Shown: positions 4,661 to 52,265 of the stretch, one piece after another
Layout: each line of letters begins with the position of its first letter
How positions within the stretch are numbered: the first letter of the stretch is position 1
Origin: Candidatus Naiadarchaeum limnaeum
Lineage (GTDB): Archaea; Undinarchaeota; Undinarchaeia; Undinarchaeales; Naiadarchaeaceae
Reading direction: 5' to 3'
Assembly: GCA_014189685.1 (NCBI GenBank)
Contig: DVAB01000033.1
Coordinates: forward strand, 1-52,915
Length of the DNA stretch: 52,915 bases
Position numbers and translations under genes: made by a program
Notes under the pieces: generated by a model
Told to the model about the DNA's origin: nothing
Seen by the model: only the letters and a program-made list of their open reading frames with translations
The model's database searches: none

Positions 4661-4698
4661 GAGGGGTCCAACGCAGGACCCTTCTTACTATTTTTTAA
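4661..4698 (+). terminator. Terminator of the S-layer gene
   Basis: GGGTCC at 4664-4669 pairs with GGACCC at 4676-4681 around a six-base loop; G4663:T4682 and A4662:T4683 can extend it. A T-rich run follows (4682-4696). It lies about 30 bases after the S-layer stop codon. Hairpin plus T-run is directly visible; use as a transcription end is inferred. Confidence 0.65.
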
Positions 4699-4710
4699 AA
4701 TTTATAAACA

Positions 4711-4834
4711 ACAGCTTCTGTCGCTAAATTGCTGTATGATAAGCTGGCACTCATAAGGGGGCATTCTCGCAAAGCTGGAAAACCCCGAGCTCGAAGCCCC
4801 CTACGTTTCTACTTTTATTTTTCCCTGAGGTGCC
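4711..4834 (+). repeat. Structured intergenic repeat, copy A
   Basis: One of five related elements in the window (A here, B 6294-6446, C 15461-15570, D 51643-51668, E 52098-52265). Nested pairings are visible: ACAGC (4711-4715) with GCTGT (4731-4735); GGCAC (4746-4750) with GTGCC (4830-4834); GGGGGC (4757-4762) with GCCCCC (4796-4801). The tail TTTCTACTTTTATTTTT (4806-4822) is shared with copies B and E. Left arm and outer stem align base for base with copy E, but the 4757/4796 stem differs in sequence while still pairing. Imperfect AT-rich direct repeats flank it (4696-4710 and 4841-4856). Confidence 0.75.
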
Positions 4835-4883
4835 TTTTTCTAAAATTATTTAAACACGAGCCCAAAACAATAAAAGGTTAGAA

Positions 4884-5456
4884 ATGGAATACAACAAAAC
4901 AAATCTAATAATTATTATTGTGTTAATCGCATTTTTAGTAGTTGGGAGCTATTTTGTCATTAAAATTAGACGTGAGCAAAACCAGGACTTGTATAGCAAT
5001 ATATTTTCTTGCCACGAACAGAGGGTCCCTTTTAGAGTTAACATTTCTGCGTGCAACGGCATTCCAGTATCTCCTGATGAGGGAACTCTCACTAACACCC
5101 TCACAAGCCCATTTGTAAACGGAGTTGTCATCTTGGTAGATCCTGGTGAAACCGGCGGAACAGGAGTTTCTGCGTTTGAGATTTACAAGATTTATAATTC
5201 GCTGCAAAACTACACTGGAAAAAGAGTCGGCATAGCATACACAAAACCCTGGCCAAACCAGACAAACATTCCGGTCATGAGCATTGATAACGCCACTTTT
5301 CAAAATCCAATAATTTTGCTCAGGCGCAATCAATCAATAACTCAGATAAGAGTTGACGGCCCAGCGATATATGTCGATGCAATTTCACAACAGGATTTAG
5401 ATTCAGCATCTTGCAAAATCTCCATACTCACCATTAAAAAAGTTCTTAACTGCTGA
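4884..5456 (+). CDS. Single-pass membrane protein of unknown function
   Basis: 190 aa with one N-terminal transmembrane helix (about residues 8-27, Ile/Val-rich) followed by a basic stop-transfer (KIRREQ) and an extracytoplasmic domain of about 160 residues. The exported part contains a Gly-rich GETGGTG loop near residue 92, several Asn sequons and three to four Cys residues (FSCHEQ, SACNG, SASCK, LNC) that could form disulfides. No family recognised. A TATA-like TTATTTAAAC lies at 4847-4856. The stop overlaps the next ATG by one base (TGATG at 5454-5458), so translation is probably coupled with the tRNA methyltransferase, though a shared job is not evident. Confidence 0.7.
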   Translation: MEYNKTNLIIIIVLIAFLVVGSYFVIKIRREQNQDLYSNIFSCHEQRVPFRVNISACNGIPVSPDEGTLTNTLTSPFVNGVVILVDPGETGGTGVSAFEIYKIYNSLQNYTGKRVGIAYTKPWPNQTNIPVMSIDNATFQNPIILLRRNQSITQIRVDGPAIYVDAISQQDLDSASCKISILTIKKVLNC

Positions 5457-6334
5457 TGACCCGCTTTGATATTCTCCTAAAAGGAAAGTTAACTCCAACA
5501 GAGCGAAAAAAATTGCGCACTTCTTTAGACATTCTTGGCGAAATTGCAATAGTTGAAATTCCTCGCGAACTCTCAAAAAGATCTAGTGTAATTGGAACAG
5601 CAATTCTAAAAGCAAACCCACAATTAAGAGCTGTTTTCAAAAAGGCCACTCCTGTGCGCGGAGAATTTAGAATTCGCGGTCTAAAGAGGATTGCAGGAAA
5701 AGGCGGGACTCTAATAACTTACAGGGAAAATACTTGCGCATTTAAGTTTGATATAGCAAAAGTTTTCTTTACCCCAAGAATGAGCTCTGAGCGTCTCAGG
5801 GTTGCAAGACAAATTAAAAATGGAGAAATTGTTGTTGATATGTTTGCAGGAGTCGGCCCGTTTGCAATCTTAATTGCAAAAACTCAGCCCCATGTTGGAA
5901 TGATTCATGTTATTGACTCAAACCCAGAGGCAATAAAATACTTGCTTGAAAGCGCCTCAATGAATAAAATTTCCCATAAAATAAGCGCCTATATCGGAGA
6001 TTCTCGTGCTGTAATTGAAGCTTACTTGATTGGCATCGCTGATCGAATTATAATGAATCTTCCTCTTACAGAGGAGCAGTTTTTTCCAAGCGCATTAAAA
6101 ACTATCAAGAAAAGCGGCATTTTACATTTTTACACATTTGCAAAAACAGAAAAAGAAGTTCAGTCCAAAATAAGAAGATCTTTGCAAAAGCGAGCCATAT
6201 TTAAAATTCTAAAAATCAGAAAAGTTCGCCAATACGCTCCGCGAATCTGGAATTTTGTTGCAGATATAAGAATAGAGAGAAAACTTAATAAATCTCGCCA
6301 GGCCGCGAGTAGGCCAGGCCACATTCGCTCGTGA
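5456..6334 (+). CDS. trm5: tRNA (guanine-37-N1)-methyltransferase, Trm5 family
   Basis: Methylates G37 next to the anticodon using S-adenosylmethionine. Residues 1-60 form the small N-terminal domain; around 93-110 is the family segment with FKFD and FTPRM; the SAM site is DMFAGVGPF (about 128-136), with acidic VIDSNP near 152-157 and GDSR near 181; the catalytic NLP motif is at 201-203. The last 13 residues (280-292) are encoded by repeat copy B. If that element and one flanking repeat are removed, the frame reads arg-lys-leu-asn-lys-stop, so the original protein ended at about residue 280. The extra basic tail is therefore probably an insertion scar. The family call is firm; whether it also makes the wyosine precursor is open. 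Confidence 0.88.
6279..6293 (+). repeat. Left 15-bp direct repeat flanking repeat copy B
   Basis: GAAAACTTAATAAAT at 6279-6293 is identical to 6447-6461. It lies inside the 3' end of trm5. A perfect 15-base direct repeat exactly bracketing a repetitive element is the expected trace of a target-site duplication. Confidence 0.8.
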
Positions 6335-6446
6335 AATAAGTGTAGCGACAATGCGAAACCTCCGGTTTCGCATGCATTCAGGAACTTCGTTCCTGAATGA
6401 GTGGCCTAAATTTCCGCTTTTATTTTTGCCAGCCTTGTAATGCGGG
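6294..6446 (+). mobile_element. Structured repeat copy B, apparent mobile insertion
   Basis: The 153-base element lies between perfect 15-bp direct repeats. Pairings: CTCGC with GCGAG near its left end; AGGCCAC (6316-6322) with GTGGCCT (6401-6407); a short CGCT/AGCG arm; ATGCGAAACC (6351-6360) with GGTTTCGCAT (6364-6373) around a three-base loop; CATTCAGGAAC (6375-6385) with GTTCCTGAATG (6389-6399) around TTC. The shared tail begins at 6409. Its core from the AGGCCAC stem to the tail is nearly identical to copy E, while its first 22 bases are shared with copy C. It encodes no protein, so any mobility needs enzymes from elsewhere. It replaced the original stop codon of trm5. Confidence 0.75.
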
Positions 6447-6461
6447 GAAAACTTAATAAAT
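6447..6461 (+). repeat. Right 15-bp direct repeat flanking copy B, overlapping a TATA box
   Basis: This second copy of GAAAACTTAATAAAT contains TTAATAAAT, the best TATA candidate for the gene starting at 6500. The TAG that would have ended trm5 before the insertion is at 6461-6463. Confidence 0.8.
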
Positions 6462-6499
6462 AGTGCATTTTTAGTTGTCTTATCTCTGAAGTGGGGAGT

Positions 6500-7816
6500 A
6501 TGAAAAAATCTTTACTGTTATCACTTTTAATCGCAAGTTTGCTCATAGCTAACGCCGCCTCTGCAGGAACAGTTGTAACGATAACAAAGCTTGTAAATAC
6601 GGAAGGAAATATAGGCCTTTATATAAGGAACGAATTTTACCCAAAAATGTTTACTGACTCGGCCTTAAGAAATGCTAGCACGCTAACTTTTCATCTCGAT
6701 GGGGTGAGAGCACCTGTTGATGGGAGTAAAAGTGCTGAGTCAATTAGCCCAGGAGATGAGCGATTGGTTGTTCTTAGGAGCCCATGGCCAACATCAACAT
6801 TCCAAAATTTAAGCATTGTTTACACAGATGGCTCCGGGACTTCCAATTATCCTGTAGAATCAATACTTGTTTTTGCAAAGCCAGCTCTTACGGTAAAGGA
6901 AGTGATCACCGAGCCACCCCACATATTTACTAATGCCTCTGTAACAATTAGGCTTAAGATGCTTGCTGCCGGTGATAAGGACGTTTCAAGTATAAATGTT
7001 AACGTCCTCAACCAACCAAAATATTTCCAGATAACGGATATGAGCAATCCTGCATTTCTGAAAGTTGGAGAAGAAAAGGAGTTTATCTTTAAATTTAAGC
7101 AATCAGGAGAGAAAATGCCAGAAACTATAATTTATTCAACCTCTTATTTTCCAGTTGAGCTCTCTTATAGCTATTATGGATATCCTGTAAAAACTGTCAT
7201 AAATCAGACCTTTGTAGTTCTTAACAGGCTTACAACACAAGGACTTATTCCAAAGCTTGATTTTAAGCTTGATGTACCACCTGAGATTGAACGGGGAAAC
7301 AGCACAAATCTAATGGTATATGCTTGGAACTCCATTTCTGGCTCAAACAAAATATGCGATGTGAATCTAACTCTAACCGCAGATGACGCAAGCATAGAAA
7401 TTTCAGAAGGCACAACATTTCTTCCAGGGCCATATGAAGGTCGGGCTGACATTCCTGAGGATCCGGTCACAACTTTTTTAATAAAAACAAGCCCTTCAAC
7501 CACCTCAAAACAGCACACACTCACAGCTGGCGCTTCTTACATAGATTGTGATTGGAAAATTCCAGATAAAAAAAGCAAATCAATTAATTTTGAAGTAAAA
7601 TCATCTGATCAACAAGTAACTGGAACACCAGCTCCAAAAGTTGAGCCAGAAAAGCAGGTTGTAACAAAGGCTGTAACCCCTCCAAAGAAAATTGGAAGTC
7701 CTAAAACAGAAGAAAATTTCACTCTTGTTTTAATATTAGTTCTTGCAACAGTCGGGGTTATAGTTCTTTTTGGGGCAGTTTATTTCTTTGAATTAAGAAG
7801 TCGTTCTGTGTTCTAG
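6500..7816 (+). CDS. Secreted, C-terminally anchored protein of unknown function
   Basis: 438 aa from the ATG at 6500. A classic signal peptide (MKKS, Leu/Ala-rich core, A-S-A before Gly) covers residues 1-22. The body is Thr/Ser/Val-rich beta structure with features of repeated immunoglobulin-like or COG1361-like domains (FIFKFKQSGEKM, TNLMVYAWNS). A Pro/Lys-rich linker (about 370-400) leads to one transmembrane helix near the C-terminus and a short basic end, so the protein should sit on the outer face of the membrane. GGGGAG ends one base before the ATG; the in-frame GTG at 6491 is an alternative, possibly leaderless start. Its stop overlaps that of carS on the other strand. No function can be named. 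Confidence 0.75.
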   Translation: MKKSLLLSLLIASLLIANAASAGTVVTITKLVNTEGNIGLYIRNEFYPKMFTDSALRNASTLTFHLDGVRAPVDGSKSAESISPGDERLVVLRSPWPTSTFQNLSIVYTDGSGTSNYPVESILVFAKPALTVKEVITEPPHIFTNASVTIRLKMLAAGDKDVSSINVNVLNQPKYFQITDMSNPAFLKVGEEKEFIFKFKQSGEKMPETIIYSTSYFPVELSYSYYGYPVKTVINQTFVVLNRLTTQGLIPKLDFKLDVPPEIERGNSTNLMVYAWNSISGSNKICDVNLTLTADDASIEISEGTTFLPGPYEGRADIPEDPVTTFLIKTSPSTTSKQHTLTAGASYIDCDWKIPDKKSKSINFEVKSSDQQVTGTPAPKVEPEKQVVTKAVTPPKKIGSPKTEENFTLVLILVLATVGVIVLFGAVYFFELRSRSVF

Positions 7817-15460: not shown

Positions 15461-15570
15461 TCTCGCCAGGCCGCGAGTAGGCCGGACTACATTAGGGGCA
15501 TGCTCGCTTCTTTAAAGTTTATGAGCTCGCAGCCCCTAAATAGGCCTCTCGTCTCCTTCTATTTTTAATA
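15461..15570 (+). repeat. Structured intergenic repeat, copy C
   Basis: Begins TCTCGCCAGGCCGCGAG, the same left end as copy B, including the CTCGC/GCGAG hairpin. TTAGGGGC (15492-15499) pairs with GCCCCTAA (15532-15539), eight perfect pairs in the place where copy A has GGGGGC/GCCCCC and copies B/E have GGCCAC/GTGGCC. An inner CTCG...GAGCTCG arm is shared with copy A. The right side has a degenerate pyrimidine tail (CTTCTATTTTTAA near 15557-15569). No flanking direct repeat is visible. It separates tRNA-Leu from the prolidase gene. Confidence 0.7.
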
Positions 15571-15596
15571 GCATTGAATTTTGATTTTTATATAAG

Positions 15597-52097: not shown

Positions 52098-52265
52098 ACA
52101 GCCGCCGCCGTTTACTAGCTGTATAATCAGCTGGCGCTTATGAGGCCACATTCGTTGTATTGTAATTGAAGCGACAATGCGAAACCAAAGGTTTCGCATG
52201 CATTCAGGAACTTCGTTCCTGAATGAGTGGCCTAAATTTCTACTTTTATTTTTGCCTGAGGTGCC
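52098..52265 (+). repeat. Structured intergenic repeat, copy E (fullest)
   Basis: All arms are present: ACAGC (52098-52102) with GCTGT (52118-52122); GGCGC (52133-52137) with GTGCC (52261-52265), one G-T pair where copy A has A-T; AGGCCAC (52143-52149) with GTGGCCT (52227-52233); CGTT/AGCG; ATGCGAAACC (52177-52186) with GGTTTCGCAT (52190-52199), loop AAA versus TCC in copy B; CATTCAGGAAC (52201-52211) with GTTCCTGAATG (52215-52225). Tail TTTCTACTTTTATTTTT from 52237. It combines the outer arms of copy A with the core of copy B. Confidence 0.8.

What the first reader, a model, noticed from the sequence alone, without database searches (positions are those of the whole stretch)
6279..6461. Repeat element bracketed by a perfect 15-bp duplication that displaced the trm5 stop codon
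GAAAACTTAATAAAT occurs at 6279-6293 and again at 6447-6461, exactly around repeat copy B. Removing the element and one repeat restores a trm5 end (arg-lys-leu-asn-lys-TAG). The element now adds about 13 basic residues to the enzyme and its right repeat supplies the TATA box of the next gene. This is strong sequence evidence for a recent insertion of a non-coding, structured element of about 153 bp. A 15-base duplication is long for common transposases and is in the range reported for casposase/Cas1-type or recombinase insertion; that link is only inference.
Basis: partly seen in the sequence, partly recalled or inferred. Interest (0 to 1): 0.85.

Follow-up and report, generated by a model that had tools for sequence, protein, structure and literature searches.

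The report
Hairpin element duplicates its target site
A 153-base non-coding hairpin sequence has inserted itself at the end of an archaeal tRNA-methylation gene, copying 15 bases of its target as it did so; it belongs to a roughly 20-copy family that also sits beside, in duplicated parts of and even inside the introns of tRNA genes, which bears on the unsolved question of how archaeal tRNA introns arise.

Summary
The 15-bp repeat is real, is the only exact 15-mer repeated within 300 bp in the window, and is a target-site duplication. A genome of another family in the same order has the same gene order with an empty site: one copy of the 15-mer (14/15 identical) followed directly by the TAG stop. 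The inserted 153 bp belongs to a family of about 20 structured, protein-less copies in this genome (two more in that relative). Helix P2 is nearly perfect Watson-Crick although its sequence differs from copy to copy. Six of 19 copies tested carry duplications abutting both ends, of 15, 17, ~20, 30, 36 and ~40 bp: variable, not a fixed 15. Two further empty sites were found, one inside the tRNA-Trp intron. Half the copies lie in or within 30 nt of tRNA genes; two lie in tRNA introns. There are no terminal inverted repeats. Cas1, reverse transcriptase and tyrosine recombinase were not found in the genome (98% complete), so the casposase suggestion has no support. Best reading: a new, TIR-less, non-autonomous hairpin element moved by an unidentified enzyme. 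Survivors are those whose duplication spares the target's function. How it copies itself, as DNA or RNA, is unresolved.

The parts
6279..6293 (+). left copy of the 15-bp target-site duplication; codes for the last RKLNK residues of the original enzyme and holds a TATA-like sequence
   Evidence: exact repeat; single copy GAAAAGTTAATAAAT in relative G001
6294..6446 (+). the inserted element (copy B), 153 bp, no gene of its own, no terminal inverted repeats
   Evidence: homology to other copies ends at or beside these bounds; RNA fold z-score -4.4
6294..6315 (+). left terminal module CTCGCCAGGCCGCGAGTAGGCC (5-bp hairpin CTCGC/GCGAG), identical at C17:15462 and C8:4070
6316..6407 (+). core helix P2 (AGGCCAC 6316-6322 with GTGGCCT 6401-6407) enclosing an inner hairpin (6325-6348)
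   Evidence: compensatory changes between copies; coordinates
6349..6400 (+). twin-hairpin module (ATGCGAAACC/GGTTTCGCAT and CATTCAGGAAC/GTTCCTGAATG), absent from most copies and found elsewhere on its own
6408..6446 (+). conserved pyrimidine-rich tract AAATTTCCGCTTTTATTTTTGCC and right end AGCCTTGTAATGCGGG
   Evidence: shared with C2 and G001_C19
6447..6461 (+). right copy of the 15-bp duplication; TATA-like sequence upstream of the next gene, followed by the original TAG stop (6462-6463 complete it)
5456..6334 (+). TRM5/TYW2-family methyltransferase, now 292 aa, ending inside the element (13 extra residues)
6491..7816 (+). next gene (unknown family), syntenic in four relatives
4711..4834 (+). 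second family copy, flanked by an older ~20-bp duplication at 4691-4710 and 4836-4856
15462..15572 (+). family copy between a Peptidase_M24 gene and a tRNA-Leu gene (both on the minus strand)
52098..52265 (+). family copy with twin-hairpin module, abutting the stop codon of a glycosyltransferase gene

Best explanation
6294-6446 is a recently inserted copy of a non-autonomous mobile element family of this archaeon. The elements are 95-190 bp, hold no gene, have no terminal inverted repeats and fold into nested hairpins. Insertion goes through a staggered cut of the target with fill-in, so each event duplicates a stretch of target of variable length (15 to about 40 bp). Target sites are mostly tRNA genes, their introns and immediate flanks, promoters and gene ends. 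In each of the six clear cases the duplication leaves one intact version of the target (stop codon, TATA box, tRNA end), so long duplications are probably over-represented among survivors in a compact genome. In the trm5 case the left 15-mer keeps the enzyme readable and the right 15-mer keeps the promoter of the next gene. Shown: family, structure with compensatory changes, duplications, three empty sites, tRNA association. Inferred: staggered cut, survivor selection, and an enzyme acting in trans. Near-absence of G-T/G-U pairs in P2 leans towards selection or correction of the hairpin at the DNA level.
For: Empty site for this copy in G001...AGAAAAGTTAATAAATAGCAAGC..., one 15-mer, same neighbours both sides. 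Empty site for copy 4711: S-layer gene, terminator, one promoter, next gene, no element. Empty site for the tRNA-Trp intron copy: G004 has a 59-nt intron starting GGCTCCAGACATTTTGGAGCGC, while G000 has GGCTCCAGA-element-GTCATAAGTTTGGAGCGC; G003 and G005 have no intron there. Flanking duplications anchored to ends defined by structure or homology in 6 of 19 copies, against a null of 342 mismatched flank pairs. Family of about 20 found with two covariance models. Compensatory changes: 6 of 23 and 7 of 14 pairs changed on both sides; slid controls collapse. P2: 171 of 172 positions Watson-Crick over 22 copies with 18 different arm sequences. tRNA genes in or beside 10 of 20 copies. No element in 19 other archaeal genomes at a convincing score except G001.
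Against: 13 of 19 copies have no recognisable duplication; they may be old or may have arisen otherwise. The duplications in the four older copies are 75-86% identical by eye, so their lengths are estimates. No mobilising enzyme was found; only three enzyme families were searched. The stem arms counted were chosen by eye, which favours intact pairs. Copies could have been kept for a function rather than moved selfishly.
Confidence: 0.85

Rival explanations
1. SINE-like spread through RNA: the element is transcribed (the left duplicate of a target promoter could serve as its own promoter), reverse transcribed and inserted by target-primed synthesis, which gives variable-length duplications and no inverted repeats.
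For: Variable duplications 15-40 bp abutting both ends and no inverted repeats; conserved structure; tRNA association; some G-U pairs in helix P1 (11 G-U against 6 A-C over the helices of A2).
Against: No reverse transcriptase (PF00078) in this 98%-complete genome or its five held relatives of the order. No consistent A-rich tail. Strict Watson-Crick pairing in P2 with no G-U at all. Left ends are of a few fixed kinds, not random truncations.
Confidence: 0.2
2. Casposase/Cas1-type DNA insertion; casposon duplications range from 1 to 27 bp with median 15 (PMC4046053), and tRNA genes are among the reported targets.
For: The 15-bp duplication of copy B and insertion at tRNA genes fit.
Against: No Cas1 in the genome or its held relatives of the order, while 9 of 14 control genomes ring. 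No terminal inverted repeats. Duplications of about 30, 36 and 40 bp lie outside the reported range.
Confidence: 0.05
3. Not mobile now: a family of host regulatory or processing RNAs (for example at tRNA loci) that were copied by ordinary duplication and recombination, the direct repeats being leftovers of each event.
For: Compensatory changes show that structure is kept, also in copies with decayed duplications; copies at tRNA 5' ends (C46, C7, G001_C19) and in tRNA introns could take part in processing.
Against: Targets share no sequence, the element boundaries are exact, orientation relative to genes is not consistent, and three empty sites show insertion of the element alone.
Confidence: 0.1
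4. Chance repeat or assembly artefact at this locus.
For: None beyond the genome being a draft of 52 contigs.
Against: Only 15-mer repeat of its kind in the window; exact coincidence with element ends; empty site in a relative; the same pattern at other loci.
Confidence: 0.01

Closest known systems
Bacterial and archaeal MITEs and small palindromic elements (Correia, ERIC, RUP; review PMC2229807)
   Same: Under 200 bp, no gene, hairpin-forming, dispersed, some with target duplications, sometimes fused to genes.
   Different: Most of those have terminal inverted repeats tied to a DDE transposase and a TA end motif with short fixed duplications; here there are no inverted repeats and duplications are long and variable.
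Rickettsia palindromic elements (RPE; PMC2229807)
   Same: 105-146 bp palindromic elements inserted in protein genes and in RNA genes (tmRNA, RNase P RNA), tolerated by the gene product; here the enzyme gained 13 residues.
   Different: RPEs have 12-bp inverted repeats and no established target duplication; unrelated organism; no tRNA-intron copies reported in the review read.
tRNA-intron transposition in Thermoproteales (Fujishima et al. 2010, described in PMC4090602)
   Same: Related sequences occur at different places in different tRNA genes of one archaeal genome; mechanism unknown according to the review.
   Different: Here the same family also lies outside tRNA genes with target duplications, and in tRNA-Trp it enlarged a pre-existing intron rather than being the whole intron. 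The primary paper was not held and not read.
tRNA-gene disruption in Caldiarchaeum (PMC3293823)
   Same: A direct repeat of the 5' part of tRNA-Thr(GGU) flanks an insertion, as at copy C44 here, also tRNA-Thr(GGT).
   Different: There a 1.9-kb insertion with a putative recombinase and proposed att-site recombination; here about 110 bp, no gene, and unrelated targets at other loci.
Mobile GC clusters and double-hairpin elements of fungal mitochondria (PMC4478555 and the Paquin et al. 2000 reference in it)
   Same: Small hairpin elements of modular make-up, mergers of units, putative target duplication, unknown enzyme, DNA or RNA route both proposed.
   Different: Organellar; short duplication (AG) rather than 15-40 bp.
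Casposons (PMC4046053)
   Same: Archaeal, duplications with median 15 bp, tRNA genes among targets.
   Different: Casposons carry cas1 and polB and 25-602-bp inverted repeats; none of this here.

Membership tests
Casposon or casposon-derived MITE | Cas1 casposase in the genome | tested here: not met
   PF01867: no match in G000 or five relatives of the order; positive in 9 of 14 controls
Casposon or casposon-derived MITE | terminal inverted repeats of 25 bp or more | tested here: not met
   element ends of copy B and other copies show no inverted repeats
Casposon or casposon-derived MITE | target duplication of 1-27 bp, median 15 (PMC4046053) | tested here: inconclusive
   15, 17 and ~20 fit; 30, 36 and ~40 do not
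DDE-transposase MITE | terminal inverted repeats | tested here: not met
DDE-transposase MITE | target duplication of fixed length | tested here: not met
   15 to ~40 bp
DDE-transposase MITE | matching transposase in the genome | not tested
SINE-like retroposon | variable-length target duplications | tested here: met
SINE-like retroposon | reverse transcriptase available | tested here: not met
   PF00078 absent from G000 and five relatives; a source outside the genome is not excluded
SINE-like retroposon | A-rich or repeated 3' tail | tested here: not met
   only C44 has an A-rich stretch before its duplication
SINE-like retroposon | transcription of the element | not testable with these tools
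   no RNA data
Integrase/att-site element | tyrosine recombinase and shared att core between sites | tested here: not met
   PF00589 absent from G000 and five relatives; the six duplicated targets share no core
REP/BIME mobilised by a Y1 (RAYT) transposase | Y1 HUH transposase | not tested
   PF01797 not searched
REP/BIME mobilised by a Y1 (RAYT) transposase | insertion without target duplication | tested here: not met
   six copies with duplications
Archaeal tRNA intron (BHB-spliced) | location in the anticodon loop of a tRNA gene | tested here: inconclusive
   met by C41 (tRNA-Trp, 215-nt intron) and C21b; not by the other copies
Archaeal tRNA intron (BHB-spliced) | bulge-helix-bulge motif at the exon-intron junctions | not tested
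   only looked at by eye; no firm result
Any Rfam family | covariance-model match | tested here: not met
   no match beyond tRNAs

The most novel reading that the evidence does not exclude
A previously undescribed class of archaeal mobile element: gene-less, inverted-repeat-less hairpin units that insert with long, variable target duplications into tRNA genes, tRNA introns, promoters and gene ends, and thereby enlarge or create tRNA introns and tRNA fragments; possibly the first SINE-like system in a prokaryote.
Probability: 0.35. Interest if true: 0.85.

Novelty: new variant of a known kind. Interest (0 to 1): 0.68.

Why it matters
How archaeal tRNA introns are gained is described as unknown in the review read here (PMC4090602). 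This family puts one and the same element inside two tRNA introns, at tRNA 5' and 3' ends and at ordinary loci with clear target duplications, with an empty-site comparison for one intron. That makes an insertion route for intron growth directly testable. The long variable duplications without inverted repeats and without Cas1, reverse transcriptase or tyrosine recombinase in the genome point to a mobilising enzyme not yet known for such elements. The trm5 case also shows how a compact genome survives insertion into overlapping coding and promoter sequence: the duplication supplies both.

Tried and rejected
Rfam scan: only tRNAs; weak hits dismissed. Plain DNA search of 40 other archaeal genomes: nothing; the two G001 copies came only from the covariance model. 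Genome-contig scan with the trm5 protein: only distant archaea, useless for an empty site. Viral contigs: one pattern without match, another with three near-identical chance matches that look coding and lack the core helix. Strand preference: all copies on C17 and C8 point one way, but others do not and contig orientation is arbitrary; left open. Idea that the left end CTCGC...GCGAG is a tRNA fragment: dropped when the C8_2355 duplication ended exactly where that module begins. Idea that C21a has a duplication: dropped because the matching stretch is shared with copy C24 and is therefore element. Terminator function: dropped because orientation to genes varies.

Full report
Observation. The 15-mer GAAAACTTAATAAAT occurs at 6279-6293 and 6447-6461 without a mismatch. 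No other exact 15-mer in the window is repeated within 300 bp. Against random positions in the window the flank match has p = 0.0007, before counting that both copies abut the ends of a repeated element.

The element. The 153 bp in between match other places of the same genome. The genome is a 984-kb archaeal draft of 52 contigs, 98% complete, and is alone in its family among the genomes held. Two covariance models were built, one from nine copies (with the twin-hairpin insert trimmed out of three) and one from seven. They find about 20 copies here: C17:4711, 6294, 15462, 52098; C1; C2; C7; C8:2355, 4070, 7892; C21 (two); C22; C24; C25; C37; C41; C44; C46; C50. Two more lie in G001, a genome of another family in the same order (C19 at E = 1e-7, C104 at 0.002). 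Other genomes gave only scores near chance.

Structure. Copies share a core helix P2 with an inner hairpin, a pyrimidine-rich tract near the right end, and one of a few left ends: a hairpin CAGCYG...CRGCTG, or CTCGC...GCGAG. The helices carry compensatory changes: 6 of 23 and 7 of 14 pairs changed on both sides, no shuffle of 500 reaching the covariation score, and slid controls losing it. The changes count copies in one genome, not independent species. In P2, 171 of 172 positions over 22 copies are Watson-Crick and none is G-T, with 18 different arm sequences (arms picked by eye). An RNA under selection would be expected to tolerate some G-U pairs, so this leans to selection or template-switch correction on DNA hairpins (inference). 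Helix P1 does have G-U pairs, so the point is not settled.

Insertion. In G001 the orthologous gene ends ...GTTGCAGACATTCTTGTTAGAAAAGTTAATAAATAGCAAGC... with one 15-mer (14/15) and TAG right after; joining the two flanks here gives ...GTTGCAGATATAAGAATAGAGAGAAAACTTAATAAATAGTGC.... Genes on both sides are orthologous in G001, G003 and G004. So the insertion and its 15-bp duplication are shown, not inferred. The gene is a TRM5/TYW2-family methyltransferase; it gained 13 residues, [13 protein letters not shown].

Other copies. I defined the ends of 19 copies by structure or by homology between copies and asked whether the outer flanks repeat. Six do, starting and ending at or within 2 bp of the element ends (in C44 about 14 nt of A-rich filler precedes the right repeat): 6294 (15/15); C44 (17/17, ATGCCTCCGTAGCTCAG, 5' part of tRNA-Thr with the intact gene on the right); 4711 (about 20 bp, promoter of the next gene); C37 (30 bp, around the stop codon of a DNA polymerase B gene); C8_2355 (36 bp, 3' end of tRNA-Cys); C8_7892 (about 40 bp, 3' end of an intron-bearing tRNA). 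The null of 342 mismatched left/right pairs has a few high scores, some of which may come from tRNA sequences in both flanks; scores and p are listed. The four older ones have decayed. In every case one version of the target remains intact, as survivor selection would predict (inference).

Further empty sites. Copy 4711: in G001 the S-layer gene is followed by a terminator, one promoter and the orthologue of the next gene. Copy C41: the element lies in a 215-nt intron of tRNA-Trp(CCA), while G004 has a 59-nt intron whose start continues straight into the sequence that lies to the right of the element here, and G003 and G005 have none. That insertion shows at most a few duplicated bases.

tRNA association. 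Ten of 20 copies lie in, in a duplicated part of, or within 30 nt of a tRNA gene: 15462, C46, C7, C8_2355, C8_7892, C44, C21a, C21b, C25, C41. With about 45 tRNA genes in a genome of this size (assumed), such places make up a few per cent of the non-coding DNA, so this is far above chance (rough estimate).

Mechanism. No Cas1, reverse transcriptase or tyrosine recombinase was found, though controls ring. DDE, Y1 and TnpB families were not searched. Long variable duplications, no inverted repeats and unrelated targets exclude att-site recombination and do not fit a standard DDE MITE. I therefore commit to insertion of a hairpin element at staggered breaks by an enzyme not identified (DNA route preferred, RNA route possible).

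Comparison. See the membership table. It works like other small palindromic non-autonomous elements (PMC2229807) and the hairpin elements of fungal mitochondria (PMC4478555), but passes the definition of none that was tested. Its closest biological parallel is archaeal tRNA-intron transposition, whose mechanism is called unknown in PMC4090602.

Noticed in passing
window 6349-6400, 52175-52226; L008 and L012 about 1500-1550; L004 about 1501-1560; L101 about 297-423: The twin-hairpin module (GCGAAACC/GGTTTCGC plus GGAAC/GTTCC) also occurs outside the family, twice inside a different element with inverted ends CATTTAATATCGGCTT / AAACCGACATTAAATG next to tRNA-Ala and tRNA-Glu, and in reversed orientation in the tRNA-Trp copy; it may move on its own.
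   Followed up: partly
L101 (C41) 211-501: tRNA-Trp gene with a 215-nt intron that contains a whole family copy and, inside that, the twin-hairpin module.
   Followed up: yes
L099 (C21) 1436-1676: tRNA gene (by eye Met, anticodon CAT; ARAGORN calls Ser) with a long intron holding a family core; another copy lies just upstream on the other strand.
   Followed up: partly
L061 (G001:C19) about 400-561: Family copy abutting the 5' end of a tRNA-Glu-like sequence that appears truncated at its 3' end.
   Followed up: no
L066 (C22) about 960-985: The element abuts the likely GTG start of a minus-strand gene and appears to supply a GGAGGT ribosome-binding sequence; at window 15461 another copy abuts the ATG of a Peptidase_M24 gene.
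   Followed up: no
whole genome G000: No tyrosine recombinase of PF00589 found at all, including XerA-like, in this genome or five relatives of the order.
   Followed up: no
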